From the NCBI GenBank assembly GCA_900696625.1, contig CAADGU010000472.1:1-36791 (forward strand): a stretch of 36,791 nt of DNA, written 5' to 3'. Below, one piece after another: positions 162-36,791 of this stretch. The position numbers and the translations under genes are program-made. Each line of letters opens with the position of its first letter. Positions within the stretch are counted from its first letter, which is position 1. The DNA comes from an uncultured Chloroflexota bacterium (GTDB lineage: Bacteria > Chloroflexota > Anaerolineae > Promineifilales > Promineifilaceae). Below the pieces are notes generated by a model. The model had not been told where the DNA came from. It saw only the letters and a list, made by a program, of their open reading frames with translations, and made no database searches.

Positions 162-418
162 CGAGCTAAATGCAGTTTGGCGGTAGCCCCACCCACAATC
201 CACGCTAATGTTTGCAAGGGGTACGGCCGTTACACGCGATGAGGTCGGTTTACGCACAGTAGTAGACCTGAAAAGTCGGTGTGTTGGCTCATCTGAAATA
301 GTAGTGGGGGAATTGGGATAGGAGAGAGGAGAGGGGGACGGCCGTTTTTGAAAAGTCACAAGTGGATTCGCGTTTTCACGATGCATCCATTCAGAGCTAT
401 CTCAATGTAAATCAGAAA

Positions 419-1387
419 CTATCTCACTGGGCGTATGCTCTCCAGTCTTTTCCTATACTTGTCACTAGCTATTGGATGACATTTTGACATTTCTGTAACC
501 CGACCAAAAGTTGCATTGAACTGCTTTATGTACTCTTCACTACTTCGGTCATGCTCTGCGTAGATTTCACATTCCCTGACGGATGCTCTGATTTTAGCTC
601 TTTCCTTTTTATCATACGTTGGTCTAGTGGAATTTACGTTCCTTTTGTTTACGGTCATTCTTTGGTTATTTGTTCTGATACTTCTCTTCTTTCTGTTTGG
701 TTTTACTCCCGCGCTAAACAGCATGGCATAGATTTGCGACGTGATTTTCTGCTGGTCTTCCTTGCTGGTGAATTCGCTTGTTGACACAGAAATATCATCC
801 ACTAGACGGGAATATGTATATCCTTGTTTGCGTAGTGCAAATTCAAGTTCGGGTTCCTTGTCCCAAAATACCAATGTTGCAATATAAGAACTGGTAGGTG
901 CACCTTGGGGAACAAATCCTCGATAGGTGGTCAACTCAGCGAGGATTGTTGCGACAGATATTGGAAAATGAAAGAACTGCGTCCACATTTTCATTACCAA
1001 ATGACGCTGTATAGATGGAAAGAAATTATCTATATCCTCATTGATAACGATCCTTTTTCCAGAATGCAGGGCAGCATTGGTTATATAACTTCGCGGTGTC
1101 TCGGAATCCTTCACTGAACCTTGTAGATAGAGTGGATAGTAGACGGCATAGAATATTTTTGTCTTTATCATTCTATGCACACATTTCAAGGGGGGTTTGA
1201 CAGTGTAGGTTTGTCGAACCCCTCCACCTGGTTTTAATTTGGGCTTATTTGCCCAGTAAAGGTGATTAGTATTTTGGGCGAGCTGATACAGTCTATCTGG
1301 TGAAATTTCTAGAATTTGTGCCAAAGTCTCAATATCCTCAACAGGTTTATCAAGGTAAACTGGTGGATTCATTCGTTGAAGCCTCAA
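419..1387 (-). CDS. Retron-type reverse transcriptase
   Basis: 322 aa with motif X-like NAALH (NAxxH), motif A INEDIDNFFPSI, motif B GFVPQGAPTSSYIATLVF and motif C YSRLVDDISVS; MTVNKRNVN sits where retron motif Y (VTG) is expected. Confidence 0.85.
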   Translation of the reverse strand: MRLQRMNPPVYLDKPVEDIETLAQILEISPDRLYQLAQNTNHLYWANKPKLKPGGGVRQTYTVKPPLKCVHRMIKTKIFYAVYYPLYLQGSVKDSETPRSYITNAALHSGKRIVINEDIDNFFPSIQRHLVMKMWTQFFHFPISVATILAELTTYRGFVPQGAPTSSYIATLVFWDKEPELEFALRKQGYTYSRLVDDISVSTSEFTSKEDQQKITSQIYAMLFSAGVKPNRKKRSIRTNNQRMTVNKRNVNSTRPTYDKKERAKIRASVRECEIYAEHDRSSEEYIKQFNATFGRVTEMSKCHPIASDKYRKRLESIRPVR

Positions 1388-2232: not shown

Positions 2233-2238
2233 GCGAAG

Positions 2239-2289: not shown

Positions 2290-2426
2290 AACAGATTGTT
2301 TTTGCGTAATAAAGCCTAAATTCTCAGTTGACACCTTATCCCCATTGAGATGGTAACAGCTGGCGATGGGAGTTGGTGATTGGGGCACGGCCGTACCCAC
2401 TCCCACCTCCCTCTCCCATCCCCAAA

Positions 2427-2470
2427 CATAACCCCCAACATAACTTTGGTTAGACGACGGCCGTACCCCC
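2427..2470. repeat. 44-bp dispersed intergenic repeat, copy 1
   Basis: cataacccccaacataactttggttagacgacggccgtaccccc; 41/44 identical to 10621-10664. Confidence 0.8.
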
Positions 2471-2548: not shown

Positions 2549-3361
2549 ATGAAAATTGTCATTGGTATTTTGATTGGGTTGGTGGTGCTGGTGGGGTTGG
2601 GCTGGTTGGGGCTGCGCGTGAAGCCCAAGTCATTTGCTGCCTATCCGGCGCAGACGCCGGATCTGCAAACTGTGCCCTTGCCGGAAGGTCTGCCCGCGCC
2701 GGTGGAACGCTATTACCGTCAGTTGTATGGCGATGAGATTCCGGTGATCACCTCGGCCGTCGTCAGTGGCCGGGCGACGATAGCCCCCTTTGGCTTTAAT
2801 CTACCCGCCCGCTTCCGCTTCACCCATGAAGCCGGGCAGGGCTACCGCCACTATATCGAGGCTACCTGGTTTGGCATCCCCATTATGAAGGTGAACGAGT
2901 GGTATCTGGATGGTCACGGCCGTCTCGAACTGCCCATCGGCACCGTCGAAGGTCCCAAGACCGACCAGGGCGCCAACCTGGGGCTGTGGGCCGAGTCGGC
3001 CAATCTGCCCGCCATCTGGCTCACCGACCCGCGTGTGCGTTGGGAAGCGGTAGATGACGAAACCGCGCTGCTCATTGTGCCCTTCGGCGAGGGAGAGGAG
3101 CAGTTTGTGGCCCGCTTTGACCCGCAAACAGGCCGCCTGCGGGCGTTAGAAGCGATGCGCTACCGGGACGAAGCCAGCGAGAAAATTCTGTGGCTGGCCG
3201 AAACCGTGCCTAGCCCCACCATCGCAGCGGCGGGAGCGGCATTGGAAACGGTGGGTACGGCCACCTGGCAGGATCAGGGCAAACCCTGGGCCACCTTTAC
3301 CACCGAAGAGATTGTCTACAACGTGGATGTGAGCAATTACATTCGCGCCAGAGGGCCTTAA
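2549..3361 (+). CDS. Membrane-anchored DUF6544-like protein
   Basis: N-terminal TM ([22 protein letters not shown]), then [11 protein letters not shown]...[27 protein letters not shown]. Internal ATG at 2549 has GGAG 6 nt upstream, preferred over 2537. Confidence 0.65.
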
Positions 3362-3485: not shown

Positions 3486-5030
3486 ATGAGCAACATTGTT
3501 TTGGAAAACCGGGAAACGGAACAACGGCCGTTAGCCCTGTTGTGGCAGCATCGCTGGTGGAGCCTGATCATTACTGTCGGCGTCACGGCGTTGTTAGGTG
3601 TGTTTATTGCCCTGACCATGCCACGCGGCCCGGCCACGGCCGTGCAGGCGCTTATCGTCATGGTCAGCAGTCTGGCGGTAGGGCTGTTGGCCGGGTTGGT
3701 GATGCGCAGCCGCTGGGCGATGTTGCTGGCCCCCATCGCCTACATCATTGCCATCGAACTGGCGCGGATGAACGCTGTTGGCCCCACAGTGGACGCCATT
3801 CGTTTCGATAATACCTTTAGCATCCTGGCCTTCATTTTGGGGCGCGGATTTCATGGCATCGTGGGGCTGCTGCCGATGATTTTAGGCGTGGAAGTGGGCG
3901 TACAGGCGGCGCGACGATTGGACGGCCGTACCCCAACCGGTGGGAGGATAATCAGGTGGCTGCCAACGGCCGTACTCGCCATCCTGGTCATCGCCTTAGC
4001 CATCCTCGTCACCCAGCCAGCCAGCACCCCGCCCATCCTCGGCGCGGACGGCGAACCGCTGCCCGGCAGCATCGCCGAACTGACCACCATTGACGTAAAC
4101 GGCAGCCAACAGGCCTTGATGATTCGCGGGTACGACGTACACAAACCGATCCTGCTCTACCTCAGCGGCGGGCCGGGCCAAAGCAGCCTGCCCTGGCCGC
4201 GTGTCCTGTTTGATGACCTGTCGCGTGATTTCCTCCTTGTTGGTTGGGATCAACGGGGCACCGGCAAATCCTACGCCGCCCTCGACCCGACCGAAACGCT
4301 GACACTCGACCAAACCATCGCCGACACGGTCACCGTGACGAACTATCTGCGCGAACGTTTCGATGAGGAAAAAATCTACCTGCTCGGTGAATCGTGGGGC
4401 ACGACACTGGCGGTGCTGGCGGCGCAGGCGCGGCCCGACCTCTACCACGCCATCATCGGCAGCGGCCAGATGGTCAGCCAGCGCGAAACCGACCGGCGGC
4501 TTTACTATGACGTGTTGGAATATGCTGAAAGTGTGGGGGACACGGCCGTGACCGAACAAATGCTGGCCTACGGGGAACCTCCCTACCAGGACTTATACGC
4601 CTACGTCTACGTCATGGCCCTCTACGAAAAGCTGTATCAGCCCTACACCCCACCGCAGGCGTACATCGAAAAAGGCACCCAGGCCAATTTAGGGCCGTGG
4701 AATGTGTTGGGCAGTGAATACAACTTTGTGGAAAAGGTGAACGTGTTTCGCGGTTTTCTGGACACGGCCGCCGTCCTCTACCCGCAGTTGCAGGGCATTG
4801 ACTTCCGCCAGGACGTGCCCCGGCTGGATGTGCCGCTCTACGTGCTGGATGGCGCAGCGGAGCTATCTGCCCGCCGTGACCTGGCGTTGGAATGGTTTAA
4901 TCAGGTAGACGCGCCGATCAAGCGCATCTTCACCTTTGAAAACGCCGCTCATGCCCCTGCCTTTGAACATTTTGAGGCATTCACCGACATCATGACCGAA
5001 ACCGTACTGCCGGAGACGTATACGGAATAG
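3486..5030 (+). CDS. Membrane-anchored alpha/beta hydrolase (proline iminopeptidase-like)
   Basis: N-terminal TM segments; LLYLSGGPGQSS, GWDQRGTGKS, LLGESWGTTLAVL nucleophile elbow; SD AAAGGAG upstream. Confidence 0.85.
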   Translation: MSNIVLENRETEQRPLALLWQHRWWSLIITVGVTALLGVFIALTMPRGPATAVQALIVMVSSLAVGLLAGLVMRSRWAMLLAPIAYIIAIELARMNAVGPTVDAIRFDNTFSILAFILGRGFHGIVGLLPMILGVEVGVQAARRLDGRTPTGGRIIRWLPTAVLAILVIALAILVTQPASTPPILGADGEPLPGSIAELTTIDVNGSQQALMIRGYDVHKPILLYLSGGPGQSSLPWPRVLFDDLSRDFLLVGWDQRGTGKSYAALDPTETLTLDQTIADTVTVTNYLRERFDEEKIYLLGESWGTTLAVLAAQARPDLYHAIIGSGQMVSQRETDRRLYYDVLEYAESVGDTAVTEQMLAYGEPPYQDLYAYVYVMALYEKLYQPYTPPQAYIEKGTQANLGPWNVLGSEYNFVEKVNVFRGFLDTAAVLYPQLQGIDFRQDVPRLDVPLYVLDGAAELSARRDLALEWFNQVDAPIKRIFTFENAAHAPAFEHFEAFTDIMTETVLPETYTE

Positions 5031-5972: not shown

Positions 5973-6890
5973 ATGGCAACCATGACGGTAGAAACACGCA
6001 AAAGCAATCTGATGGTAATTGCCGCCTGGGGCTTTATGTTGCTGGCCTGCATTTTGCCGGAGATTGTGTTGAATGAAGTTTTACAGAGGCCAGACCTGGT
6101 GGCCTGGGTGACGTGGGGGCGGTTGGTGACTTTGGCGGTGTTGGTGGTGGTTTCCTGGGTGTGGCAGCCATTACGGCCGTTGTGGAAATATGCCGCTATC
6201 TTGCTCATCTTTGCCGGGGCGCAGGTGGTGATGAATGGGGTGCGGGAAACGGCCGTGTGGCAAACCACCATCTCGCGCCTCAACGGCTCCTTCGCCCGCG
6301 ACTATCTGGGCGTGCAGGTCTGGAAATTGGGCAGCACCCTCATCGTCCTCATCGGCCTGTTCGCGCTAGGCTTCCGGCGCCAAGATGCCTTCCTGGTGCG
6401 CGGGCAGTTGAATGCGCCCATCACCCCGGTCAAATGGCTCGGTTTCCCCAAGCCCGAACCCTGGACACATTTTGGCGTGAAATGGATCATCTTCTTGAGC
6501 ATCGGCATGGTGGTATTGTTGAGCATTTTTGGCACGGTACACCTGGACAGCCTCATCGCCGCGTTGGGTTTGATGCCGGTTATTCTCGTCCTGTCCGCGC
6601 TCAATGCGTTTAACGAGGAAGTGACCTACCGGGCGGCGCAGTTAGCCCCGCTTGAGCCCGCTGTGGGTGCGCGGCAGGCGTTGTGGATGGTGGCCGTGTT
6701 GTTTGCCATCATGCACTACTATTCGGCCGTGAATGGGGTGGCAGGCGTCATCCTGACCATCTTCATGGGCTGGATGCTGACGAAGGCGATGTTGGAAACA
6801 CGCGGCTTCTTCTGGCCCTGGCTCATTCATTTCACGCAGGATGTGATTATTTTCTGGTTCATCGCCGGCGCTTCCACGCGCTTGGGTTGA
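5973..6890 (+). CDS. CPBP family intramembrane protease-like protein
   Basis: ALNAFNEEVTYRAAQLAPL, FAIMHYYSAVNG, WPWLIHFTQDVIIFW; AAGGAGG upstream of ATG 5973. Confidence 0.78.
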   Translation: MATMTVETRKSNLMVIAAWGFMLLACILPEIVLNEVLQRPDLVAWVTWGRLVTLAVLVVVSWVWQPLRPLWKYAAILLIFAGAQVVMNGVRETAVWQTTISRLNGSFARDYLGVQVWKLGSTLIVLIGLFALGFRRQDAFLVRGQLNAPITPVKWLGFPKPEPWTHFGVKWIIFLSIGMVVLLSIFGTVHLDSLIAALGLMPVILVLSALNAFNEEVTYRAAQLAPLEPAVGARQALWMVAVLFAIMHYYSAVNGVAGVILTIFMGWMLTKAMLETRGFFWPWLIHFTQDVIIFWFIAGASTRLG

Positions 6891-6927: not shown

Positions 6928-7575
6928 ATGACCATTAAATGGCAGGAATTATCCCCACTTGTTGTGGGGTTGATGACGTTTTTACTGATGTGGAGTGATT
7001 GGCTGCTCACTGTGTTACAGGAACGGGAGCGCAGCAGCCATTACGCCGAGCATTATCAGAGTTACCCCATCAACACGATTGAGGGAAATCCGCTGTTGCA
7101 AGCCTCGGTCAAGAAAGCCCGGTTTTTTGAAATGCGGCACATTTTTGTGGCCATCCTCTTAAGCGGGGTTGTCGCTTACGCGGCGAGCCTTCTTGGGGAT
7201 CCGTATCTTGAGCTTTTCCTGGGATATGTATGGGGATTATTCCTGATAGTAGGCAGTACCCATCTGGGAAATATCATCGGTTACAAAGCCAGCCGGCGTG
7301 GTTTGCACGGGAAGCTTTATCTTCACCTGCGTACCGGACTTTTGGTACAGATGGGGCGCTATGCGGCCATGACCCTCTTTTTGATTATTCTGGCCGTTTT
7401 TTCCACCTCAGTTTTTGTGGCGGGGACAGCCATGGCGGGCTTCACCTCCACGCTGCGTCAACTGGTTTGGCTGCGAAAAACGCCACCGATTCCGATGGAT
7501 GATCAACCACCAATCGACCATGACTTGTATGACTGCAACCTAACAGAGGGGATTTATAACGGCCGTGATGCGTGA
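6928..7575 (+). CDS. Predicted multi-pass membrane protein
   Basis: 215 aa with several hydrophobic segments; co-directional with neighbours. C-term ..NGRDA* is encoded by ACGGCCGT plus the adjoining hairpin repeat. Confidence 0.65.
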   Translation: MTIKWQELSPLVVGLMTFLLMWSDWLLTVLQERERSSHYAEHYQSYPINTIEGNPLLQASVKKARFFEMRHIFVAILLSGVVAYAASLLGDPYLELFLGYVWGLFLIVGSTHLGNIIGYKASRRGLHGKLYLHLRTGLLVQMGRYAAMTLFLIILAVFSTSVFVAGTAMAGFTSTLRQLVWLRKTPPIPMDDQPPIDHDLYDCNLTEGIYNGRDA

Positions 7576-8252: not shown

Positions 8253-9163
8253 TGAAAAAACAACCGATTCTCGACTGGCTGATCCCGTTGATCGCTATTT
8301 TGGCGCTGGTTGCCGCCGGGGCAGGGCTGTTTTGGCAGGATGGCGGCGCACCGGTTGCTTTTACCACGCTGCACGGCGAAACCGTGCAGCTTTACGGACA
8401 GGGCATTTACCGCTTTGATTGGGACTTCAAAGCGCCCATCCAGCGCGGCACAGACGCGGTGACATTGTTTGTCTGCCTACCGCTGCTGCTTTATGCCTTT
8501 TGGCGCACCCGGCGCGGCTCGCTCAAAGGGGGCGTATTGTTGATCGGGGCGCTCAGTTACTTTTTGTATTATGGCGTTTCGCTGGCCTTTTCGATGATGT
8601 TTAACAGCCTGTTTCTGGTGTATACCGTTCTGTTTTCGGCCAGTTTTTTTGCGTTTGTGGTTGCGATCACGGCCGTTTCCCCCCAGTACCTCGCCGCCCA
8701 CCTGTCACCCCAAACGCCGCGCCGCGGCATGGCTATTTTCTTATTTGTCGCCGGGGCAGGCGTCCTCTTCATCTGGCTCAGCGAAATCATCGGCCCGCTG
8801 CGGCAAGGGCAGGTTCCGGCTGAAGCCTTAGGCCCGTACACGACGATGGTCACGCACGCGCTGGACATAGCGATTATTGCCCCGGCGACGATGGTGACGG
8901 CCGTTTACCTGCTGCGGCGCGATCCGGTGGGCTACTTACTGGCTGCGCCCTTGCTCATTCTCTGCGCGCTGATCGGCGCGGTGGTGATTGCCCAAACTGT
9001 GTTTCAAACGCTGGCGGGCATCACGTTCCCCATTGGCGTCTACATCGGCATGATCGGGTCCTGGGTGGTGCTGGGCGTGTTTGCCATCTGGCTGACGCTG
9101 GCCTTTTTCCGCAATCTGACCGAACCGGCAACGGAACAACCTGTGACGTTGTCGGCAGCGTGA
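8252..9163 (+). CDS. Predicted multi-pass membrane protein
   Basis: MKKQPILDWLIPLIAILALVAAGAGLF...; translationally coupled to the preceding gene. Confidence 0.7.
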   Translation: MKKQPILDWLIPLIAILALVAAGAGLFWQDGGAPVAFTTLHGETVQLYGQGIYRFDWDFKAPIQRGTDAVTLFVCLPLLLYAFWRTRRGSLKGGVLLIGALSYFLYYGVSLAFSMMFNSLFLVYTVLFSASFFAFVVAITAVSPQYLAAHLSPQTPRRGMAIFLFVAGAGVLFIWLSEIIGPLRQGQVPAEALGPYTTMVTHALDIAIIAPATMVTAVYLLRRDPVGYLLAAPLLILCALIGAVVIAQTVFQTLAGITFPIGVYIGMIGSWVVLGVFAIWLTLAFFRNLTEPATEQPVTLSAA

Positions 9164-9756: not shown

Positions 9757-10593
9757 ATGACAAAACTCATCCTGGTGGAAGGATTACCCGGTTCGGGCAA
9801 AACGACAACGGCCGTATTCATCGCCAATTGGTTGCAGCAGCAGGGGCGGGAAACGGCCGTTTTCCTGGAAGGCAACCTGGATCATCCCGCCGACTTTGAA
9901 TCCGTCGCCTGCCTGGATGCGCGGGAATACGCCAGCCTGTTGGCCCGGTTCCCGGCCGAGGCGTCGTTTGTGCAGAGCCAGGTCATTCAGGATGGAGACG
10001 ACCACTTTTTCCATTATCGCGCCTTGCAGCAAAATTACCCCGATCTGGCCGAGGCGCTCATAACATCGCTGGCGCAGTATGAGATTTATGAATTGCCCGT
10101 GCCCAAATACCAACGGCTGGTGCGGCAGCGCTGGCAGCGTTTTGCCGAGGCAGCAGCCACCGGCAATCCCGTCTACATTTTTGAGTGCTGCTTCCTGCAA
10201 AACCCGCTGACGATGCTGCTGGGCCGCCACGATGAGTCGGTGAGCGCGGCGGAGTCGTTTGTGCTGGAATTGGCGGCGGCGGTGCGGGGGTTACGGCCGT
10301 GTCTCATTTATCTGCATCCCGGTGCGGTGCGGACCACATTGACAAAAATTGCCGGGGAACGGCCGTCGGCATGGCTCGATTTTGTCATTGCCTACCACAC
10401 GCAGCAGGGGCATGGCAAAGCCCAGGGCTGGCAGGGTTTTGACGGCCTGGTGCAGTTCTACGAAATGCGCCAGGCCATCGAACTGGCGCTGCTGCCGCAG
10501 TTACCATTTCCCGGTGTACTGGTGCAGCACAGCAGCCAGGCTGCTAACCAGTCACAAATTGCAGATTTTCTGGCAAGGATCTTCCCCGCCTGA
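9757..10593 (+). CDS. P-loop NTPase / nucleoside-kinase-like protein
   Basis: MTKLILVEGLPGSGKTTTAVFIANWLQQ (Walker A). Confidence 0.75.
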   Translation: MTKLILVEGLPGSGKTTTAVFIANWLQQQGRETAVFLEGNLDHPADFESVACLDAREYASLLARFPAEASFVQSQVIQDGDDHFFHYRALQQNYPDLAEALITSLAQYEIYELPVPKYQRLVRQRWQRFAEAAATGNPVYIFECCFLQNPLTMLLGRHDESVSAAESFVLELAAAVRGLRPCLIYLHPGAVRTTLTKIAGERPSAWLDFVIAYHTQQGHGKAQGWQGFDGLVQFYEMRQAIELALLPQLPFPGVLVQHSSQAANQSQIADFLARIFPA

Positions 10594-10620: not shown

Positions 10621-10664
10621 CATAACCCCGATCATAACTTTGGTTAGAGGACGGCCGTACCCCC
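10621..10664. repeat. 44-bp dispersed intergenic repeat, copy 2
   Basis: cataaccccgatcataactttggttagaggacggccgtaccccc; 41/44 identical to 2427-2470. Confidence 0.8.
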
Positions 10665-10842: not shown

Positions 10843-11529
10843 ATGCACACTAAAACTTTCTTTTCGATGATCTTGTTGGTCCTATTGGCCACCTCTTTAG
10901 CAGCCTGCAATGGGTTGACAGGGCGCGTAGGGAATTCAGAAATCGTGTCCGGTTCCGGCAATGTGGTCACGGAAACGCGAGAGGTGAGTGGCTTCACGGC
11001 CGTGACCCTGCAAGGTTTTGGCCAGGTGATCATTGACCAGAACGGCAGCGAGTCGCTGACCATTACGGCCGATGATAACTTCATGCCACACCTGAAAACG
11101 GCCGTCAGAGGCAACACCCTCTACATCAGCAACACCGATAGAACTGCTTTCACGAACGTGACCGAACTGACCTTCCGCATCAGCGCCGCGGCGCTGAATG
11201 CGGTGGAACTGTCCGGCGCGGGCAGCATGGAGATCACTGATCTGGACACCGACCGATGGCAGGTCAAACTGCCAGGCGCGGGCAGCATCACCGTCTCCGG
11301 GCAGACCAACAGCCAGACGGTGGAACTGAGCGGCGCCGGCAGCTACAACGCCGCCGACCTGACCAGCCAGGAAGCCACCATCACCAGCAACGGTGCGGGG
11401 TCGGTTGTGGTGAATGTCAGTGACACATTAGATGTCACCATCAATGGGTTGGGCAATGTGGAATACATCGGCAACCCCACGGTGACCCAAAAAATTAACG
11501 GGGTGGGCAGTGTACGGCAACGGCCGTAG
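10843..11529 (+). CDS. GIN-domain (DUF2807) lipoprotein, putative auto-transporter adhesin type
   Basis: Lipobox LAAC; VSGFTAVTLQGFGQVIIDQNGSESLTITADDN...VELSGAGSMEI repeats; SD AGGAG. Confidence 0.85.
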   Translation: MHTKTFFSMILLVLLATSLAACNGLTGRVGNSEIVSGSGNVVTETREVSGFTAVTLQGFGQVIIDQNGSESLTITADDNFMPHLKTAVRGNTLYISNTDRTAFTNVTELTFRISAAALNAVELSGAGSMEITDLDTDRWQVKLPGAGSITVSGQTNSQTVELSGAGSYNAADLTSQEATITSNGAGSVVVNVSDTLDVTINGLGNVEYIGNPTVTQKINGVGSVRQRP

Positions 11530-11553: not shown

Positions 11554-12201
11554 ATGTTTCGTTCCATTCTCATATTGTTACTCTTTTTGTTGTTGGTCAG
11601 TTGCACGGCCGTTGGCGAAGCCGAACCGTCCGGGAATATGACGGACGATATGCAAAACGTGGCCGTCATCTGGCCGGGCGCCAATGAATCGGTAGACGCC
11701 CAGCCGGTGTTGCAATGGGAAGCGTTCCCCGAAGCGGCCCAATACCAGGTCATCATTGTCAACGGCGACACGAATGAGACGGTGTTCACGCAAAAGACCA
11801 CCGAGATGGTCATGCCGGTGACGCCGCCGCTGCCGGGCGGCGTTCGCTACACCTGGACGGTGCAGGCCCAAGACGCCAACGGTGAGGTGATCGGCGAGGT
11901 ACATACTTTTTTCCGGGTCAAGGCGCTCCTGGAAACGGTAGAACCGGCTAACCTGGCGACCACATCGGCCACGCCCACATTGGCCTGGAAACCATTTGAC
12001 AATGCCGTCACCTATCAGGTGGTGCTGCTGGACGACGATGCCTACCCGCCGGTGGTTGTGAGCGATGAAGAAAGCAAAGAAACCAGCTTTGCCGTCACCA
12101 CCCCCCTGGAATCGGGCAGCTACAGTTGGACGGTCTGGGCTAAAGATGCCAACGGCACAGTCATTGCCGAAGCAAATAACCAGTTTATGGTAGAGAAGTA
12201 A
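11554..12201 (+). CDS. Lipoprotein with two Ig/FN3-like repeats
   Basis: LLLVSC lipobox; two similar units (VDAQPVLQWEAFPEAAQYQVIIVNGD.. / TSATPTLAWKPFDNAVTYQVVLLDDD..); AGGAGG SD. Confidence 0.75.
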   Translation: MFRSILILLLFLLLVSCTAVGEAEPSGNMTDDMQNVAVIWPGANESVDAQPVLQWEAFPEAAQYQVIIVNGDTNETVFTQKTTEMVMPVTPPLPGGVRYTWTVQAQDANGEVIGEVHTFFRVKALLETVEPANLATTSATPTLAWKPFDNAVTYQVVLLDDDAYPPVVVSDEESKETSFAVTTPLESGSYSWTVWAKDANGTVIAEANNQFMVEK

Positions 12202-20554: not shown

Positions 20555-20604
20555 CCATTCAACTGCAATTATATGTTTCTTACCAGCATGGGTACAATTA
20601 TCGC

Positions 20605-21411: not shown

Positions 21412-21442
21412 ACCGTAATCCGATTACGGGTTACGGGTTACG
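21394..21442. repeat. Heptad inverted repeat (GTGAACC/GTAATCY - GGTTACG) holding both stop codons of two convergent genes
   Basis: GTGAACC GTAATCT GTGAACC GTAATCC / GATTACG GGTTACG GGTTACG. Confidence 0.85.
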
Positions 21443-23461: not shown

Positions 23462-23644
23462 ACGCCTGATTGTATACCCCTATGGGAGGGCGGCAAAGGG
23501 TGTTGCGGACACGGCCGTGCTGGATGATCTGAGTGAGCCGGTGCTCACGGCCGTGACCCTGGACGACATCACCTTGCCAGAATAAACGCATCCTTGCTGT
23601 TTATAGTTTTCTTTTGTGGTTGCCAGAGGTATACTTTTTTCGAT

Positions 23645-26714: not shown

Positions 26715-26755
26715 TTCGCTTTTTAGCCGACGAAGATTTTAACGGCCGTAACCTG
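26711..26755 (+). pseudogene. Truncated DUF5615 (PIN-like) toxin remnant
   Basis: MIRFLADEDFNGRN, the N-terminus of DUF5615 proteins, overlaps the DUF433 stop (ATGA); similarity stops after ~14-15 codons. The ORF track continues to 27145 in unrelated sequence. Confidence 0.65.
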
Positions 26756-28489: not shown

Positions 28490-28672
28490 CTTTCTTCACC
28501 CTTGTTCCGGCGAGGTCTTCCGCTGGTAGCGGTGGCCTGTGTCACCACCGTGTCACACCTGTTTGTCTAACGTGAATGGTGGAATTATACGGCCGTACCC
28601 CTCCCCCAGCTAATCCCCTCACGGCCGTACACCCCCTGCCCCCCGCCCCTTACCTGCCCTATTCCTTTCGTG

Positions 28673-28685: not shown

Positions 28686-31600
28686 ATGCCCGCCTTCATT
28701 AGCCGCCTTTTTAACATCCGCCGTGAGGAGTGGCCGCGTGTTTTATTACTCTTTTTGATGGCCTTCCTGGCGGTGACGGGCATTACCTGGGGCAAGCTGA
28801 CGGTGCAGCCCTTGTTCTGGCAGGTGGTGGGGGTAGACCGGCTCGGTTTTAGTTTCATCGTGGAAGGGGTGGCGGCCATCCTGCTGGTGATGGTTTACTC
28901 CCCCTTTGCGGACAGGTTGAATCACGGCCGTCTGCTCTGGATTATTGCCTTGGGCAGCGCCACGGCCGTACTCATTGGCTGGTATCTGCTCATTGCCGAT
29001 TATCAGGCAGCGGGTGCGTTTTTGCTCTATCCCCTCTTCACCGTCATACCCTTTATCCTGAATCTGCATTGGTGGACGTATGTCACCGGCTTCTATGATG
29101 CCCGCGCCGCCAAACGCATTGTGCCCGTGCTGGCTTCCAATGCCCGGCTGGCGGGCGCGTTTGCCGGGTTTAGCGTCGGTTTGCTGACGCGCTGGTTGGG
29201 GTCGTCAGAAGCTGTGATTGCGCTGTGGGCGCTCACGTTGCTGGTGATGGCCGGACTGGTCTGGTTGTCGCCGGTGATATTGCGCGGGGAGGGGCCAGTG
29301 GTGGGGGAGACGGCCCCAGCCTCTACTCCCGCCACCATCCCCTTCACCGAGAGCCTGCGCGAAGGCTACCGCTACGTCATGGATTCGCCCTATCTGCGCT
29401 GGCTGTCCCTGGCCACCTTGCTCGTTTCCCTGCTGCTCATCCTGATGAAGTTTGAGAGCAGCCGTATTATTGACGGCGCTTTTGGCAGCCACGTCGCTGC
29501 CACTGCCTTTCTGGGTAATCTGGAAGGATGGGCCAACCTGCTGCTGCTGCCAGTGCAAATCTTCCTGCTCAGCCGCCTCATCAACAAAATCGGCCTGCAC
29601 AATGCCAACCTCATCTTTCCGGTGGGTACGGCCGGCATCGCCGGCGGGTTGCTCATGGTCATCTTCCTTTCCCTGACGCCCGGCATCGTCATTCTGGGGT
29701 CGCTGGCCTACCTTTCCGCCAATGTGCTGAACACCACCTTCCGCAACCCCATTGACAATTTGCTGTACAACGCCGTGCCCCTGCGCATGAAGGGGCGGGC
29801 GCGCGCTTTTGTCAATGGCCTGCTTGTGCCCACAGCTTCCTTGCTGGGCGGTTTGTTGTTATTGCTGCCCTTTATCACCGGTACTGGTTGGGTGCTGCCG
29901 GTGCTGCTGGTGGTGGTTGCCGCCGTTTATCTGATGGCCGCCTGGCGCGTCAGCCGCCAATATACCAGCGCCCTGGTGACGATGTTAGAACAGGAAGATT
30001 ACTCCTTCTTGCTGGGGCAGGAGGCGGCCGATGTGACGGTGACAGACCCGGCGGCGCTGGAATGGCTGCGCGAGCGGCTGGAACAAAGCCAGAGTGACGA
30101 ATTGACTCTGTTTATGGTCACACTCATTAGCGAAGTGGGCGGCGATAAGGCGGTCCCCATTCTGGCCGATGTGGCCCGCAGCCGGGACGCCCATATGCGG
30201 GCGGCGGTGCTGGACATTTTGGCAGCGGTGGCCGCCCCCGTCCCGGCGGTGCATGACTTTTTCGCCGAATTTCTGGCCGATGCCGACCCGCAGGTGCGCC
30301 GCTCGGCGCTGGCCGGGTTGGAGCGGGTGGATGGGGCGCAGGATACCCATTATCTGGCGGCGGCGGCGCGCATGTTGGCTGATGCGGACACGGCCGTGCG
30401 CCTGCAAGCTCTCCCCGGTTTACTGCGCTACGGCGACCTGGCGCAGCGGGAACAGGCCTTACGGCTGGTACAAACCATGCTCAGCAGCGAAGAATCGGTG
30501 GAGCGGGCGGCGGCGCTGCGGGCGTTGGGACAGACGGAAGATATGGGTTTTGTGGGCAACGTCACCAGGATGCTGCCTGACGGTTCAGACCGGGTGCGCC
30601 TGGAAGCGGCGCTGATCTTGGAACGGTTCTCGACGCAGAAAATGCCGCCGCCGGTGGCGGAGCAGGTGACACAGGCGATGAGCGGCCATCTGCATGACCC
30701 GGTAGAGCGCACCCGTGAGGCGTCGCTGGTGACGCTGGCGCGGCTGGGCGACCAGCGTGTTTATCCATTGTTGGCGGAAACGCTGAGTGACAACAGCCCC
30801 CAATTGCGGGCAACGGCCGTGACCGTCCTGGCCGGTCTGGGCAAAAGAGTGATCCCCACCGTTCACCCGCTGCTGGATTCGCCTAACCCGCAACTGCGCA
30901 AAATGGCGACCGTGATTCTGGGGCGCATCAACCGGCGCGAATATGGCCCGCTGGTGACGGCCCAGGTGCAGGCCAACCTGCTGCACATTGCCGAAAATGT
31001 GGGCTTCATTGAAGCCCTGGCCCCTATCAAGAGTTATGCCGCCGTCAATGTGCTGCTGACGGTATTCCAGAACGAAAACAGCCGGTTGTTGGACGAGATT
31101 TTCTTTTTGCTCACGGCCGTGCAAACGCCCCAATCGGTAGCCATCATCCGCGAATCGTTAGCCAGCGACACGGAACGGGTGCAGGCCAACGCCATTGAAG
31201 CGTTGGAATCGCTCACCTCGGCCAGAACGGCAGAAATGATCGCGCCGCTGGCGCAGCCAGAGCCTTCTATGGCCGAAATCAAACAAATGAGCCAGGAATT
31301 ATGGGATATGAAGTTCCCCAGCACGGCCGAAGCCATGGAAAAGCTGGCGACCGACCTGGGTGTTGACCCCTGGCCCCGTTCCATTGCTGTGTATGCGTTG
31401 GGCGAAATTGGGCAGGCCATTGTTGCGCCGCAACAAACAGCCCTACCGTCAACCCCGTCACCCAAACCGGATGATGCGGCAGCCGACGGCCGCGCCGCCC
31501 CCCGCCCCCGCCGCACCGATTTGTTGGACATGCTCACAGAAGAAGGTGAAACGCCGCCCGTTGTGAAGGACGCGCCACCCGCCGAGACGAAACTGGCCGA

Positions 31601-32387
31601 TGCCCGCCAATCACGCCGCGAACGGGCGGTCCGTGCCAGCGGTCTGCTGGATGATCTGGCAGCCGGTGACCCGCCTCCTACGCCTGTGCCAACACCCGCT
31701 GCTCTGGAAACGGTTTATTACCCACCGCCGGCCGTGGCCAAGAACCTACCCATTACCCGTGTGTTGGCCTGGTTGCAGGCGGCCAATCTGGCCCCGGAGG
31801 AAGAGGTGCGGCTGGCGGTGCAGCGGGCCAATGAACGCATGGCGGGCAAGGGGGATGCCTTGTTGCGGCGGCGCTCACAGCCACAGGAGGTCACGATGTT
31901 ATCCACCATTGAACGCATTATTTTCCTGAAGGAAGTCCTCTTTTTCCGCGAGATGACGGTTGACCAGCTCAAGGTGCTGGCTTCGGTTTGTGAAGAGGCG
32001 TTTTATACGGAAGATACGCTGATTTATAAAGAGGGCGACCCCGGCGGGCAGTTGTATGTGGTGGTGCAGGGCCGGGTGAGCATTGAACGAGAATCACGCA
32101 AAGGGGTGGTGGCCCGGTTGGCAACCATTGAGGCTTACTCCTATTTTGGCGAGATGAATTTGTTTGACGCCAGCCCGCGCACGGACACGGCCGTTGCTCT
32201 GCAAGACACCATCACCCTCACCCTGCGCCGCGAACCGCTCATCGCCCTGGCGCGACAATACCCTGACCTGTCGTTGGAATTGATCAACGTCCTCAGCCAA
32301 CGCCTGCGCGAGACCACCGACCAGGTGGCCAGCCTGACCAAATCCCACCCCCGCGCCTTGCACAAAGTGTTTGATCAACTTGAATAG
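28686..32387 (+). CDS. NTT/MFS-like transporter domain fused to HEAT repeats and a C-terminal cyclic nucleotide-binding domain
   Basis: 12-TM-like N-terminus; tandem HEAT units (VRRSALAGLERVDG, VRLQALPGLLRYGD, VRLEAALILERF, LRATAVTVLAGLGK); cNMP fold EDTLIYKEGDPGGQLYVVVQGRVSIERE...YSYFGEMNLFDASPRTDTAVAL. Confidence 0.85.
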   Translation: MPAFISRLFNIRREEWPRVLLLFLMAFLAVTGITWGKLTVQPLFWQVVGVDRLGFSFIVEGVAAILLVMVYSPFADRLNHGRLLWIIALGSATAVLIGWYLLIADYQAAGAFLLYPLFTVIPFILNLHWWTYVTGFYDARAAKRIVPVLASNARLAGAFAGFSVGLLTRWLGSSEAVIALWALTLLVMAGLVWLSPVILRGEGPVVGETAPASTPATIPFTESLREGYRYVMDSPYLRWLSLATLLVSLLLILMKFESSRIIDGAFGSHVAATAFLGNLEGWANLLLLPVQIFLLSRLINKIGLHNANLIFPVGTAGIAGGLLMVIFLSLTPGIVILGSLAYLSANVLNTTFRNPIDNLLYNAVPLRMKGRARAFVNGLLVPTASLLGGLLLLLPFITGTGWVLPVLLVVVAAVYLMAAWRVSRQYTSALVTMLEQEDYSFLLGQEAADVTVTDPAALEWLRERLEQSQSDELTLFMVTLISEVGGDKAVPILADVARSRDAHMRAAVLDILAAVAAPVPAVHDFFAEFLADADPQVRRSALAGLERVDGAQDTHYLAAAARMLADADTAVRLQALPGLLRYGDLAQREQALRLVQTMLSSEESVERAAALRALGQTEDMGFVGNVTRMLPDGSDRVRLEAALILERFSTQKMPPPVAEQVTQAMSGHLHDPVERTREASLVTLARLGDQRVYPLLAETLSDNSPQLRATAVTVLAGLGKRVIPTVHPLLDSPNPQLRKMATVILGRINRREYGPLVTAQVQANLLHIAENVGFIEALAPIKSYAAVNVLLTVFQNENSRLLDEIFFLLTAVQTPQSVAIIRESLASDTERVQANAIEALESLTSARTAEMIAPLAQPEPSMAEIKQMSQELWDMKFPSTAEAMEKLATDLGVDPWPRSIAVYALGEIGQAIVAPQQTALPSTPSPKPDDAAADGRAAPRPRRTDLLDMLTEEGETPPVVKDAPPAETKLADARQSRRERAVRASGLLDDLAAGDPPPTPVPTPAALETVYYPPPAVAKNLPITRVLAWLQAANLAPEEEVRLAVQRANERMAGKGDALLRRRSQPQEVTMLSTIERIIFLKEVLFFREMTVDQLKVLASVCEEAFYTEDTLIYKEGDPGGQLYVVVQGRVSIERESRKGVVARLATIEAYSYFGEMNLFDASPRTDTAVALQDTITLTLRREPLIALARQYPDLSLELINVLSQRLRETTDQVASLTKSHPRALHKVFDQLE

Positions 32388-32447: not shown

Positions 32448-32951
32448 ATGCCCACCATCCGCCCCGCTACCCCAAACGACATCCCGGCCATTACTGAGAT
32501 ATACAATGAGGCCATTGTGTACACGCGCAATACGTTTGATACTGTACCCAAGACAGTAGCCGACCGGGAAGAATGGTACCACCAGCATATGCCGGCCTAC
32601 CCCATTTTGGTGGCTGAAGATGCGGGGCAGGTGGTGGGGTTTGCTTCGGTGAGTAAATGGTCGGATCGGCCGGCCTACGGCCGTACCGTTATCGCCTCTG
32701 AATACATCCGCCAGGATTATCGCGGTCAGGGGATTGGCAAGGCGCTGCTGGTAGCGTTACTGGAAGCCGCCTACGCCGCCGGGTATCATACTGTCATGGG
32801 CAACGTGTATGCCGGCAACGAAGTCAGCCGCCGCATGGTGGAATCCATCGGCTTCCGCACCGTGGGTCTGCTGAAAGAAGTGGGCTACAAATTTGACGAG
32901 TGGCTGGATGTATATCTGGTACAGCATATGAGGCCAAAGAGTGGAGATTGA
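32448..32951 (+). CDS. GNAT-family N-acetyltransferase (phosphinothricin acetyltransferase-like)
   Basis: MPTIRPATPNDIPAITEIYNEAIVYTRNTFD...EYIRQDYRGQGIGKALLVALLEAAYAAGYHTVMGNVYAGNEVSRRMVESIGFRTVG. Confidence 0.92.
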   Translation: MPTIRPATPNDIPAITEIYNEAIVYTRNTFDTVPKTVADREEWYHQHMPAYPILVAEDAGQVVGFASVSKWSDRPAYGRTVIASEYIRQDYRGQGIGKALLVALLEAAYAAGYHTVMGNVYAGNEVSRRMVESIGFRTVGLLKEVGYKFDEWLDVYLVQHMRPKSGD

Positions 32952-33886: not shown

Positions 33887-35629
33887 ATGACACATAAATG
33901 TATTTTAGGACTATTGCTACTCTTTCTGGTCGGCTGCACGGCCGTGAACGAACCCACCCTGCGGCCCACCCCTACCCCCATTGTCATCCCCACGTCGGAG
34001 CTAAAAGACCGTACGCTGCGGCTCTTTTGGTGGCAGGCGCCCCAGGTTGTCAATCCGCACCTGACCAGCGCCACTGCCGACCGGGACGCGGCGCGCCTGA
34101 TTTATGAACCCCTGGCCAGCTTTAACGCCGACGGTGAACTGGTACCGGTGCTGGCCGCCGAAATCCCCAGCTTTGACAATGGCCTGCTTGACCCCGATTT
34201 GAAATGGGTGCGCTGGACAATTCCGGCAGGGCTGCGTTGGTCAGACGGCAAAGCCTTTACCGCCCACGATATTAAATTCACCTACGACTTTATCAAGAGT
34301 GAAGGCGCAGTCACGGCCAGCACCTACAATGCTGTTGAGAGCGTGGATGTGGTGGATATGCAAACGGTGCAGGTCAATTTTAAGGACACCAATCCGGCCT
34401 GGGCGCTGCCGTTTGTGGGTACGGAAGGCATGATCATACCGGGGCACATCTATTCTGAAACGAGTGAAGCGCCCATGCCTTCGGTGGGCAGCGGGCCATA
34501 CCAGTTGCTCTCGGCCAACACGGAGGAGGTGTTGTTTCTGGGCAGTGAACTGGTGACGACGGTGAAGCTGATTTATGAGGTGAATCCGTATTACCGGGGC
34601 AAGGCGGATTTGTATTTTCAGCGGGTAGAGATGCAGGGCGGCGGCACGGCCGTAGAAGCGGCCGGCGCTGTTTTGCAATTTGGCGACGTAGACTTTGCCT
34701 ACAACTTGCAGTTGGAAGGGGACGTGCTGGATAGGATGGTGGCCGAGGGCAATGGGGTGGGGCGGCTGATGAACAGCCTGGGTGGCCGGGTGGAATTCCT
34801 TTCCCTCATCCAGAATGACCCCAACGATACCACCTTCAACACCCCCCATCCCTTCCTGAATGTGGCCGCCGACGAGACCAACCTGCTGGTGGCCCAGGCC
34901 ATCGCCCACGCCATTGACAAGGAAACGATTGCCGCTTTGTATGGGCCGACCGGGGCGGTAGCCAACGCCATCTTGTTTGCCCCGGCCAATTTCCGTTCTG
35001 AGCAGGATTTTTACCCCTACGATTTAGACAGAGCCAGACAATTGCTGGCGCAGGCCGGCTGGTCGGATAGTAATGGCAATGGGATTGTAGACAGGAACGG
35101 CCGTGACCTCTCTCTCACCCTGCGCACCGGCCCCAACGCCCTCCGCCAGGCCACGCAGCGCCTCATCCAGCAGTCACTTGGCCAGATTGGCATTGAGCTA
35201 AAACTGGATGTGAGCGGCCAATTTTTCAGCACCAGCACCGCCATCCCCAACAGCCTGTGGGCGGGCACGGCCGATATGCCCATGTTCACCAATGGTAACC
35301 AGACGCCTGACCCCACCTCCTACATGCGCGAATGGACGTGCGCCCGCATCCCACAAGAAACAGATGGCAGTTGGGTGGGCGTGAATGTGGCCCGCTGGTG
35401 TAGTGACGCCTATGACGCCCTCTATGCCCAGGTGGTGGCGGAAACAGACCCGGCCATGCGCGAACAACTCTTTAAGCAAATGAATGATATGCTGGTGCAA
35501 AATGGCATTGTCATCCCCCTCATCAGCCGGGCGCGGGTCTCCGGCGTCAGCAACCAGATTGAGGGAGTGGAACTCACCGACTGGGATTCGCACCTGTGGA
35601 ATATACACGAATGGAGGCGTAAACCATGA
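33887..35629 (+). CDS. ABC transporter family 5 (peptide-type) substrate-binding lipoprotein
   Basis: Lipobox LFLVGC; DRTLRLFWWQAPQVVNPHLTSATADRDAARLIYEPLASFNADGELVPVLAAEIPSF; RWSDGKAFTAHDIKFTYDF. Confidence 0.92.
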   Translation: MTHKCILGLLLLFLVGCTAVNEPTLRPTPTPIVIPTSELKDRTLRLFWWQAPQVVNPHLTSATADRDAARLIYEPLASFNADGELVPVLAAEIPSFDNGLLDPDLKWVRWTIPAGLRWSDGKAFTAHDIKFTYDFIKSEGAVTASTYNAVESVDVVDMQTVQVNFKDTNPAWALPFVGTEGMIIPGHIYSETSEAPMPSVGSGPYQLLSANTEEVLFLGSELVTTVKLIYEVNPYYRGKADLYFQRVEMQGGGTAVEAAGAVLQFGDVDFAYNLQLEGDVLDRMVAEGNGVGRLMNSLGGRVEFLSLIQNDPNDTTFNTPHPFLNVAADETNLLVAQAIAHAIDKETIAALYGPTGAVANAILFAPANFRSEQDFYPYDLDRARQLLAQAGWSDSNGNGIVDRNGRDLSLTLRTGPNALRQATQRLIQQSLGQIGIELKLDVSGQFFSTSTAIPNSLWAGTADMPMFTNGNQTPDPTSYMREWTCARIPQETDGSWVGVNVARWCSDAYDALYAQVVAETDPAMREQLFKQMNDMLVQNGIVIPLISRARVSGVSNQIEGVELTDWDSHLWNIHEWRRKP

Positions 35630-36791
35630 GCGAACAACAAATGACGCCCGATACGCCGGTGCTGGAAGTGATGGCGGCAGAGGTGCATACGGAAACAACC
35701 AGCCCGCAAACATTCTCCCTTTTCCGCCGCATCCCCATCAGCCGCAAGCTGACCATAGGCTTTTCTATCCTGGTGCTGTTGACGCTGCTGGTGGCGGCGC
35801 TCAGTTACTTCAGCAGTGATGACGCCAGCCAGAAGATCGAAGACACCAATCAACTACGGGTGCCTATTGCCCTGGAAGCCGCCGCCGCCGAATCTAACCT
35901 GCTGCGGATGCTTTCCAACACGCGCGGTTATCTGGCGCTGGGGGATGAACGCTTCTTGCTTGATTATCTGGCGGCGCAAATCGCCTTTGAGTCCAACCTG
36001 GATAATCTGGAGCCGCTGCTGGCGGCAACCGGCGGCGGCAGCCAGGAACAGTTAGCCATGTTGGGCCAATTACGCACATCGCTGTTGACTTATGATGACT
36101 GGGCCGAACAATCGTTTGTGCTGCGCGACGACCAATTAGCGCGTGAACCGGCTTACAAGATTGTGGCTACTGAAGGGACAACGTTGGCCGGTAATGTGCT
36201 GCTGGATACCCAAAAGGTGATTGACAGCGTGGCCCGTGAAGCGGCCGTAGAAGATGTGGCGGTTCTACGAGACCTGGCTCGCTTTCAAAGCTCCTTCCTG
36301 GCCATGTTGTCCGGCTTACGCAGTTACACCACCACCCGCAACCGTAGTTACCGCAGCGAATATATTGCCAACAGTTTGCTCAATGACCAGGCGTGGGCGG
36401 CGCTGCAAGAGCGGGTGGGGCGGGGGGAATTTAATGAGGAGCAGGTGGCCTTGCTGGCGGCGATGGGCGAAAACCGGGCGGCGTTTCTGCTGCTGCCTGA
36501 AGAGCAGGTTTTTCCTGTATTAGAGAGCGAACAATGGCGGCAGGATTTACTGTTGTTCCGGGAACAAGTGCTGCCGCTGGCCGATGATATGCTGCGGCTG
36601 CTGGAGAATATCACCGCCAGCCAGCAGCTAGAGTTGCAGCGGGAACTGGGCGCGGGCACACTCAGCCTGTTGCAGTCGCGGCAGTTGACGTTGACGATTG
36701 GGGCAATTGCTATTGTGATTGGGCTGATGCTGGCGTATCTGTTCCGGCGTAATATCGTGGGGCCGGTGGGGCGGCTCACGGCCGTGTCCGA
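35626..36791 (+). CDS. Membrane sensor protein (chemoreceptor/histidine-kinase type) N-terminal part with HAMP start; truncated by window end
   Basis: RIPISRKLTIGFSILVLLTLLVAALSYFSS (TM1), long helical sensor, second TM LTLTIGAIAIVIGLMLAYLFRRNIVGPVGRLTAVS (HAMP entry); ATGA overlap with the upstream stop. Not in ORF track because no stop in window. Confidence 0.8.
   Translation, partial: MSEQQMTPDTPVLEVMAAEVHTETTSPQTFSLFRRIPISRKLTIGFSILVLLTLLVAALSYFSSDDASQKIEDTNQLRVPIALEAAAAESNLLRMLSNTRGYLALGDERFLLDYLAAQIAFESNLDNLEPLLAATGGGSQEQLAMLGQLRTSLLTYDDWAEQSFVLRDDQLAREPAYKIVATEGTTLAGNVLLDTQKVIDSVAREAAVEDVAVLRDLARFQSSFLAMLSGLRSYTTTRNRSYRSEYIANSLLNDQAWAALQERVGRGEFNEEQVALLAAMGENRAAFLLLPEEQVFPVLESEQWRQDLLLFREQVLPLADDMLRLLENITASQQLELQRELGAGTLSLLQSRQLTLTIGAIAIVIGLMLAYLFRRNIVGPVGRLTAVS

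What the first reader, a model, noticed from the sequence alone, without database searches (positions are those of the whole stretch)
223..36785. ACGGCCGT is a highly iterated palindrome across the window (HIP1-like)
The exact 8-mer ACGGCCGT appears about 70 times (my manual list: 71; e.g. 223, 338, 2387, 2457, 3524, 3922, 3966, 9808, 9853, 18495, 18518, 21486, 21526, 22356, 28589, 28621, 28924, 28962, 36778), i.e. one per ~500 bp. At ~57% GC about one copy is expected by chance. One-base variants (ACGGCCGA, TCGGCCGT) occur but are far rarer, so selection or maintenance acts on the full palindrome. Copies sit in genes on both strands and in spacers. The architecture matches cyanobacterial HIP1 (GCGATCGC), but the sequence is different and the host is apparently not a cyanobacterium. 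It contains an EagI-type CGGCCG core, so a DNA methyltransferase or a nucleoid/segregation-type binding protein is a reasonable hypothesis.
Basis: partly seen in the sequence, partly recalled or inferred. Interest (0 to 1): 0.85.

Follow-up and report, generated by a model that had tools for sequence, protein, structure and literature searches.

The report
Near-saturated genome-wide palindrome in Chloroflexota
In a family of uncultured Chloroflexota bacteria, almost every place in the genome that could spell the eight letters ACGGCCGT without changing a protein does spell them, so strongly that proteins carry seven times more Thr-Ala-Val than expected; this is like the cyanobacterial HIP1 signal, which I found described only in cyanobacteria.

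Summary
Confirmed. ACGGCCGT occurs exactly 71 times in the window (about 1-2 expected) and 13,708 times in the 6.95 Mb genome (reversed control 192). The host belongs to a Chloroflexota family that includes Promineifilum. The palindrome is family-wide and absent elsewhere in the phylum sample. The core CGGCCG is kept while the outer base switches by lineage: ACGGCCGT in most genera, TCGGCCGA in two genomes, GCGGCCGC in one, bare CGGCCG in others.

Codon usage does not explain it. In genus genes, 963 of 1,078 places where the protein permits ACGGCCGT have it (125 after synonymous shuffling). T-A-V is 7-fold over-represented; where the outer base switched, the enriched tripeptides switch too (S-A-[DE], A-A-A). 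Orthologous sites are conserved as a sharp 8-bp block. Phage-like contigs nearly lack it.

The same test on cyanobacterial HIP1 gives the same behaviour, weaker (62%). So this is a HIP-class element outside cyanobacteria, not HIP1 itself. The maintaining enzyme is not identified: cytosine-5 methyltransferases are excluded as a general cause, and a Dam-like enzyme and a divergent amino-methyltransferase are each missing from some HIP genomes. I favour methylation-guided, repair-biased maintenance at about 0.4.

The parts
223..230 (.). ACGGCCGT copy 1 (not in a called gene)
   Evidence: exact match
338..345 (.). ACGGCCGT copy 2 (not in a called gene)
2387..2394 (.). ACGGCCGT copy 3 (not in a called gene)
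2457..2464 (.). ACGGCCGT copy 4 (not in a called gene)
2916..2923 (.). ACGGCCGT copy 5, encodes H-G-R (+)
3524..3531 (.). ACGGCCGT copy 6, encodes Q-R-P-L (+)
3636..3643 (.). ACGGCCGT copy 7, encodes T-A-V (+)
3922..3929 (.). ACGGCCGT copy 8, encodes D-G-R (+)
3966..3973 (.). ACGGCCGT copy 9, encodes T-A-V (+)
4542..4549 (.). ACGGCCGT copy 10, encodes T-A-V (+)
6173..6180 (.). ACGGCCGT copy 11, encodes L-R-P-L (+)
6249..6256 (.). ACGGCCGT copy 12, encodes T-A-V (+)
7559..7566 (.). ACGGCCGT copy 13, encodes N-G-R (+)
8669..8676 (.). ACGGCCGT copy 14, encodes T-A-V (+)
8897..8904 (.). ACGGCCGT copy 15, encodes T-A-V (+)
9808..9815 (.). ACGGCCGT copy 16, encodes T-A-V (+)
9853..9860 (.). ACGGCCGT copy 17, encodes T-A-V (+)
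10293..10300 (.). ACGGCCGT copy 18, encodes L-R-P-C (+)
10359..10366 (.). ACGGCCGT copy 19, encodes E-R-P-S (+)
10651..10658 (.). ACGGCCGT copy 20 (not in a called gene)
10996..11003 (.). ACGGCCGT copy 21, encodes T-A-V (+)
11098..11105 (.). ACGGCCGT copy 22, encodes T-A-V (+)
11520..11527 (.). ACGGCCGT copy 23 (at a gene end)
11605..11612 (.). ACGGCCGT copy 24, reads N-G-R (-) in the ORF called here
12617..12624 (.). ACGGCCGT copy 25, encodes T-A-V (+)
12998..13005 (.). ACGGCCGT copy 26, encodes T-A-V (+)
13806..13813 (.). ACGGCCGT copy 27, encodes T-A-V (-)
13910..13917 (.). ACGGCCGT copy 28, encodes N-G-R (-)
14905..14912 (.). ACGGCCGT copy 29, encodes T-A-V (-)
15433..15440 (.). ACGGCCGT copy 30, encodes T-A-V (-)
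15620..15627 (.). ACGGCCGT copy 31, encodes Y-G-R (-)
15654..15661 (.). ACGGCCGT copy 32, encodes T-A-V (-)
17357..17364 (.). ACGGCCGT copy 33, encodes Y-G-R (+)
18171..18178 (.). ACGGCCGT copy 34, encodes Q-R-P-F (+)
18495..18502 (.). ACGGCCGT copy 35, encodes T-A-V (-)
18518..18525 (.). ACGGCCGT copy 36, encodes D-G-R (-)
18648..18655 (.). ACGGCCGT copy 37, encodes T-A-V (-)
18784..18791 (.). ACGGCCGT copy 38, encodes L-R-P-L (-)
19008..19015 (.). ACGGCCGT copy 39, encodes T-A-V (-)
19168..19175 (.). ACGGCCGT copy 40, encodes K-R-P-S (-)
20004..20011 (.). ACGGCCGT copy 41, encodes E-R-P-Y (-)
20072..20079 (.). ACGGCCGT copy 42, encodes T-A-V (-)
20159..20166 (.). ACGGCCGT copy 43, encodes T-A-V (-)
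21135..21142 (.). ACGGCCGT copy 44, encodes A-R-P-S (+)
21330..21337 (.). ACGGCCGT copy 45, encodes I-R-P-S (+)
21486..21493 (.). ACGGCCGT copy 46, encodes T-A-V (-)
21526..21533 (.). ACGGCCGT copy 47, encodes L-R-P-L (-)
21701..21708 (.). ACGGCCGT copy 48, encodes Y-G-R (-)
22167..22174 (.). ACGGCCGT copy 49, encodes T-A-V (-)
22356..22363 (.). ACGGCCGT copy 50, encodes T-A-V (-)
22701..22708 (.). ACGGCCGT copy 51, encodes T-A-V (-)
22908..22915 (.). ACGGCCGT copy 52, encodes T-A-V (-)
23060..23067 (.). ACGGCCGT copy 53, encodes D-G-R (-)
23327..23334 (.). ACGGCCGT copy 54, encodes N-G-R (-)
23511..23518 (.). ACGGCCGT copy 55 (spacer)
23547..23554 (.). ACGGCCGT copy 56 (spacer)
23974..23981 (.). 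ACGGCCGT copy 57, encodes D-G-R (+)
26742..26749 (.). ACGGCCGT copy 58 (spacer)
28589..28596 (.). ACGGCCGT copy 59 (spacer)
28621..28628 (.). ACGGCCGT copy 60 (spacer)
28924..28931 (.). ACGGCCGT copy 61, encodes H-G-R (+)
28962..28969 (.). ACGGCCGT copy 62, encodes T-A-V (+)
30390..30397 (.). ACGGCCGT copy 63, encodes T-A-V (+)
30813..30820 (.). ACGGCCGT copy 64, encodes T-A-V (+)
31113..31120 (.). ACGGCCGT copy 65, encodes T-A-V (+)
32187..32194 (.). ACGGCCGT copy 66, encodes T-A-V (+)
32677..32684 (.). ACGGCCGT copy 67, encodes Y-G-R (+)
33938..33945 (.). ACGGCCGT copy 68, encodes T-A-V (+)
34646..34653 (.). ACGGCCGT copy 69, encodes T-A-V (+)
35097..35104 (.). ACGGCCGT copy 70, encodes N-G-R (+)
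36778..36785 (.). ACGGCCGT copy 71 (window edge)

Best explanation
ACGGCCGT is a highly iterated palindrome (HIP-class element) of a Chloroflexota family. It is read as DNA, not as codons, by something that recognises the palindromic core CGGCCG plus one outer base on each side. SHOWN: the word is at near-saturation wherever the protein allows, it is conserved site by site, and it shapes the proteome. Core recognition is family-wide and the outer base changes by lineage. INFERRED from the ratio of one-step variants to intact sites: a roughly constant scaled drive or selection of about 5 on each site, coding or not. INFERRED, most likely mechanism: the palindrome is recognised, probably methylated, by a solitary DNA-modification enzyme, and repair or recombination biased by that mark favours alleles that complete the palindrome and restores those that lose it (the type of model Elhai 2015 proposed for HIP1). 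Which enzyme does this is unknown. A divergent, Cys-rich amino-methyltransferase of about 660 aa (own-genome copy G000:C343:33393-35429) is one unproven candidate for setting the outer base.
For: 71 copies in the window, 13,708 in the genome. 963 of 1,078 permissible positions realised against 125 codon-shuffled; no other palindromic octamer passes 27%. In the window 59 of 63, and every T-A-V. T-A-V 7.0x; with TCGGCCGA instead S-A-[DE] 4.4x and T-A-V 1.0x; with GCGGCCGC A-A-A 4.2x and T-A-V 0.2x; none in non-HIP relatives. Realised fractions follow the outer base per genome: G253 TCGGCCGA 0.78, G181 GCGGCCGC 0.78, G151 bare CGGCCG 0.84. Silent one-off variants 30 against 419 expected. Orthologous sites 97.6% identical per base inside the 8 bp, 78-83% at the bases just outside; whole site kept 122 of 143 against 42% for same-GC octamers, P 7e-26. 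Spacer DNA: 63 copies against 0.5 expected. HIP1 in cyanobacterial plasmids behaves the same way. Phage-like contigs nearly lack it.
Against: No methylation data exist for these genomes here. m5C methyltransferases (PF00145) are absent from near-complete HIP genomes G249, G251, G252. The Dam-like enzyme is absent or very weak in HIP genomes G251 and G214. The A1 amino-methyltransferase is absent from HIP genomes G133 and G278 and present in many genomes outside the family with no HIP, so neither necessity nor sufficiency holds; the genus-level association of A1 with a fixed outer base is weak (Fisher P 0.01-0.045, not corrected for ancestry). Repair bias versus selection on individual sites cannot be separated with these data.
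Confidence: 0.4

Rival explanations
1. The palindrome is a DNA-uptake signal: competent cells prefer fragments that carry it, so recombination spreads it (molecular drive), as for the uptake sequences of Haemophilus and Neisseria.
For: Uptake sequences also reach about one per kb and change slowly between relatives (own knowledge); a drive by uptake would raise the word in coding and spacer DNA alike and would shape proteins, as seen. Mobile DNA nearly lacks the word.
Against: Known uptake sequences are non-palindromic (PMC1939737); a strict inner palindrome with a switching outer pair looks like recognition by a symmetric DNA-binding enzyme. Competence was not tested here.
Confidence: 0.2
2. 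It is a binding site for a nucleoid, segregation or recombination protein (for example Chi-like or MatS-like), and each copy is selected for that function.
For: Strong site-by-site conservation.
Against: Spacing is close to Poisson over 300 kb (CV 1.07) with no coding/spacer preference. The number of copies is set by how many places the proteins allow, not by an optimum density. A palindrome cannot give the strand polarity of Chi. Such sites need not be saturated.
Confidence: 0.15
3. Near-cognate words are toxic (cut by an endonuclease) and the palindrome is the protected form.
For: Silent one-offs are rare: 30 against 419.
Against: One-offs that cannot be mended silently persist: outer non-silent one-offs are enriched (248 against 107), core ones are only mildly reduced (97 against 138), and one-offs in spacers are at chance.
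Confidence: 0.07
4. It is a by-product of codon usage or of a protein motif (Thr-Ala-Val).
For: T-A-V is the commonest reading of the palindrome in genes.
Against: Codon shuffling gives 125, not 963; all three frames and spacers show it; the enriched peptides change with the outer DNA base.
Confidence: 0.01
5. It is part of a dispersed mobile or structural repeat.
For: A few copies sit in short spacer repeats (L027:5009-5490; window 23508-23590).
Against: Conservation stops at 8 bp: identity drops from 0.96-0.99 to 0.78-0.83 at the next base; no common 12-mer context.
Confidence: 0.01

Closest known systems
HIP1 (GCGATCGC) of cyanobacteria (PMC4390886)
   Same: 8-bp GC-rich palindrome at 500-2500 copies per Mb, in genes and spacers. 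Outer base less fixed than core, as HIP1 GCGATCGC versus TCGATCGA on CGATCG. Near-saturation of permissible sites and matching tripeptide enrichment, tested here on two cyanobacterial plasmids: 84/136 and 19/33, A-I-A 59 against 15 expected.
   Different: Different core (CGGCCG, not CGATCG); Chloroflexota host; stronger saturation (89%; 96% for T-A-V); no m5C methyltransferase common to the carriers; GCGATCGC itself is avoided here (0 of 290 possible, shuffled 19).
Alternate HIPs of cyanobacteria: GGGATCCC, GGCGCC, rCCGGy, GCsGC (PMC4390886)
   Same: A different palindrome replaces the usual one in a lineage.
   Different: There each switch is a sporadic single lineage and the genome carries a methyltransferase able to modify the word; here the core is kept across most genera of a family and only the outer pair switches. 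One genome (G262) does switch core, to TGCCGGCA.
DNA uptake sequences (USS/DUS) (PMC1939737)
   Same: Hundreds to thousands of short copies spread through genes and spacers.
   Different: Those words are non-palindromic; uptake was not tested here.

Membership tests
HIP class (Elhai 2015) | Palindromic, GC-rich oligomer, at least 75% GC in most cases | tested here: met
   ACGGCCGT is palindromic, 6 of 8 G/C (criterion).
HIP class (Elhai 2015) | About 500-2500 copies per Mb and far above expectation | tested here: met
   1,973 per Mb; 13,708 against 192 for the reversed word.
HIP class (Elhai 2015) | One-off variants concentrate at the first and last base | tested here: met
   Outer non-silent one-offs 248 against 107 expected, core ones 97 against 138.
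HIP class (Elhai 2015) | Genome carries a methyltransferase able to modify the word | tested here: inconclusive
   PF00145 absent in G249, G251, G252. Dam-like D12 and the A1 amino-methyltransferase are present in most carriers, not all; specificities unknown.
HIP1 proper | Sequence GCGATCGC in a cyanobacterium | tested here: not met
   GCGATCGC realised at 0 of 290 places; congeners are Chloroflexota.
Uptake sequence (USS/DUS) | Non-palindromic word | tested here: not met
   The word is a perfect palindrome.
Uptake sequence (USS/DUS) | Preferred in DNA uptake by competent cells | not testable with these tools
   Needs an uptake assay; competence genes not searched.
Chi-type recombination signal | Oriented, strand-biased word | tested here: not met
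   A palindrome has no orientation.
CGGCCG-specific m5C modification (EagI type) | m5C methyltransferase in every carrier | tested here: not met
   PF00145 found in 24 of 52 family genomes only; in G000, two of the three lie on phage-like contigs almost without the word.

The most novel reading that the evidence does not exclude
A DNA-modification system of one Chloroflexota family, whose outer-base specificity is swappable, drives an 8-bp palindrome to near-saturation and thereby fixes thousands of amino-acid positions; each change of specificity rewrites both genome and proteome anew.
Probability: 0.3. Interest if true: 0.95.

Novelty: new variant of a known kind. Interest (0 to 1): 0.82.

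Why it matters
What HIP1 is for has long been open, and I found such elements described only in cyanobacteria (14 papers in the library hold the phrase, none reports one elsewhere as far as titles and abstracts show). An independent case in another phylum, with natural switches of the outer base, separates core from flank recognition and gives many natural replicates for finding the responsible gene. The permissible-site (saturation) measure turns 'over-represented' into a near-absolute rule and yields an estimate of the force per site. The proteome effect shows that a DNA-level signal can fix thousands of amino acids.

Tried and rejected
m5C methyltransferases as the general cause: rejected. 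Dam-like D12 enzyme: near family-wide but Dam family (TIGR00571) and missing or very weak in two HIP genomes. A1 amino-methyltransferase: found through weak PF01555 hits, conserved in most carriers, but absent in G133 and G278 and present without HIP in other families and phyla; its tree shows very long branches in TCGGCCGA genomes, suggestive only, since long branches may mislead. Its predicted structure (pLDDT 84) gave only generic methyltransferase-fold matches in the PDB, none at E below 0.001. Its gene neighbours (dus, LysM, histidine kinase) give no hint. Codon usage and repeat origin rejected. Regular spacing not found. Literature: no hit for this word as a genomic motif among the papers listed.

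Full report
OBSERVATION. The whole genome (6.95 Mb, 641 contigs) holds 13,708 copies, one per 507 bp, while the same letters read backwards occur 192 times. In 300 kb of a congener the spacing is near Poisson (CV 1.07), and the share in genes is about what gene length predicts (556 observed, 535 expected).

HOST. G000 itself is unnamed. The family name is my inference from these titles.

DISTRIBUTION. Of 249 genomes of the class, ACGGCCGT is high only in this family (1,000-2,000 per Mb in most genera); elsewhere it is mostly about 20 per Mb, and at most about 120 per Mb. In a 121-genome draw over the phylum the highest outside count was 471 in 7.7 Mb. Within the family (52 genomes), most genera carry ACGGCCGT; two genomes carry TCGGCCGA, one GCGGCCGC; genus g9 and G151 carry CGGCCG with little or no fixed outer base; g2 and g172 are weak; g163 and g165 lack it; G262 carries TGCCGGCA instead (3,665 copies). 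The order-mate G224 also has bare CGGCCG at 5x. So the core is old and the outer pair turns over, which parallels GCGATCGC and TCGATCGA on CGATCG in cyanobacteria.

NOT CODON USAGE. I counted every place in genus-g1 genes (489 kb) where ACGGCCGT could stand without changing the protein: 1,078, of which 963 (89%) are ACGGCCGT; synonymous shuffling gives 125. For Thr-Ala-Val it is 535 of 558 (96%). The next best of all 256 palindromic octamers reaches 27%. In the window it is 59 of 63, with no T-A-V missed. In G253 the realised fraction is 0.78 for TCGGCCGA but 0.07 for ACGGCCGT; in G181 0.78 for GCGGCCGC and 0 for ACGGCCGT; in G151 0.84 for CGGCCG.

PROTEOME EFFECT. T-A-V is 7.0 times over-represented in g1 and 6.8 times in other ACGGCCGT genera; permutations such as V-A-T are not. 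In TCGGCCGA genomes T-A-V is at 1.0 and S-A-[DE] at 4.4; in the GCGGCCGC genome T-A-V is at 0.2 and A-A-A at 4.2; in relatives without HIP all are near 1 or below. The DNA word therefore dictates amino acids, not the reverse.

FORCE PER SITE. One-step variants that could be mended silently number 30 against 419 expected, beside 967 intact sites; in spacers one-offs are at chance beside 63 intact sites against 0.5 expected. If one-step variants and intact sites are in balance, this corresponds to a scaled force of about 5 per site, similar in coding and spacer DNA (the arithmetic assumes equal mutation rates and about 6.6 silent one-step variants per coding site, and the spacer value rests on very few counts). 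Variants with a wrong outer base that the protein forbids mending are enriched 2.3 times, as expected if the core is attracted independently of the outer base. Orthologous comparisons show a sharp 8-bp block of conservation: 0.976 inside, 0.78 and 0.83 at the bases just outside; intact sites are kept in 122 of 143 comparisons against 42% for octamers of equal GC. Two phage-like contigs of the same genome have 0 and 2 copies in 20 kb and 1 of 6 permissible sites, so the word seems to accumulate slowly in resident DNA.

COMPARISON WITH HIP1. The same measure on two cyanobacterial plasmids gives 84/136 and 19/33 for GCGATCGC, and A-I-A 59 against 15 expected in the first. ACGGCCGT therefore behaves as HIP1 does, more strongly (plasmids may understate the cyanobacterial chromosome). 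It fits the class 'HIP' as Elhai defined it but is not HIP1.

WHAT MAINTAINS IT. Elhai's model needs a methyltransferase. PF00145 is missing from G249, G251 and G252, which are near-complete and HIP-rich. PF01555 hits in G252 reduce to weak ones, among them a ~660 aa protein with Cys pairs, motif I near the N-terminus and TDPPY near the C-terminus. This A1 protein is full length in most carriers but absent from G133 and G278; it is absent from g9 and G151, where the outer base is not fixed, and very diverged in TCGGCCGA genomes. It also occurs in many phyla without HIP. It is a candidate for setting the outer base, no more. Selection, repair-biased drive and uptake-biased drive all remain possible; I rank methylation-guided, repair-biased maintenance first (about 0.4) because of the palindromic recognition, the parallel with HIP1 and the lineage-wise specificity switches.

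LIMITS. Genes were called by a simple ORF method; most family genomes are represented by 20-30 kb each; shuffles keep protein and codon counts but not codon-pair bias; related genomes are not independent.

Noticed in passing
window 22484-22542: A ~60-bp hairpin repeat (AGATTGGAGATT type), with dozens of partial relatives in the genus genomes, lies inside the open reading frame of the MoeA/PBP protein (21431-23461, minus strand); the alignment with congener G234 breaks there. Similar hairpins lie at 20506-20562 and, by blast, at 21387-21444.
   Followed up: partly
window 23508-23590: Stretch with two ACGGCCGT copies that matches many places in congeners at 80-95%, perhaps a dispersed regulatory or structural repeat.
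   Followed up: no
L027:5009-5490: Cluster of ten ACGGCCGT copies in 480 bp of imperfectly repeated DNA.
   Followed up: no
G262 (L133): Family member whose iterated palindrome is TGCCGGCA (realised at 0.51 of permissible sites) and in which GGCC is strongly avoided (0.07 against 0.24 shuffled) and CGGCCG nearly absent: a core switch.
   Followed up: partly
genus g1 genes: Several palindromic octamers are strongly avoided, e.g. ACCGCGGT 2 against 71 shuffled, GCGATCGC 0 against 19, TTCGCGAA 0 against 17.
   Followed up: no
L025 and L026 (own genome, C30 and C314): Phage-like contigs (terminase-like, primase-like ORFs by eye) each carry an m5C methyltransferase and almost lack ACGGCCGT.
   Followed up: partly
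L282:4644-11085: A 6.4-kb stretch without ACGGCCGT in an otherwise typical contig of the own genome, possibly recently acquired.
   Followed up: no
L162 (G277:C849): The ends of the fragment read MGSEMCIRD and VSYTHLRAHET, which I recognise from memory as sequencing-adapter read-through; the assembly of G277 is probably adapter-contaminated.
   Followed up: no
literature, PMC6329791: Another member of the class (CL500-11, genome BD1) has 77,932 GCWGC sites in a 2.89 Mb draft, 93% m4C-methylated: perhaps a further iterated, methylated word in Anaerolineae.
   Followed up: no
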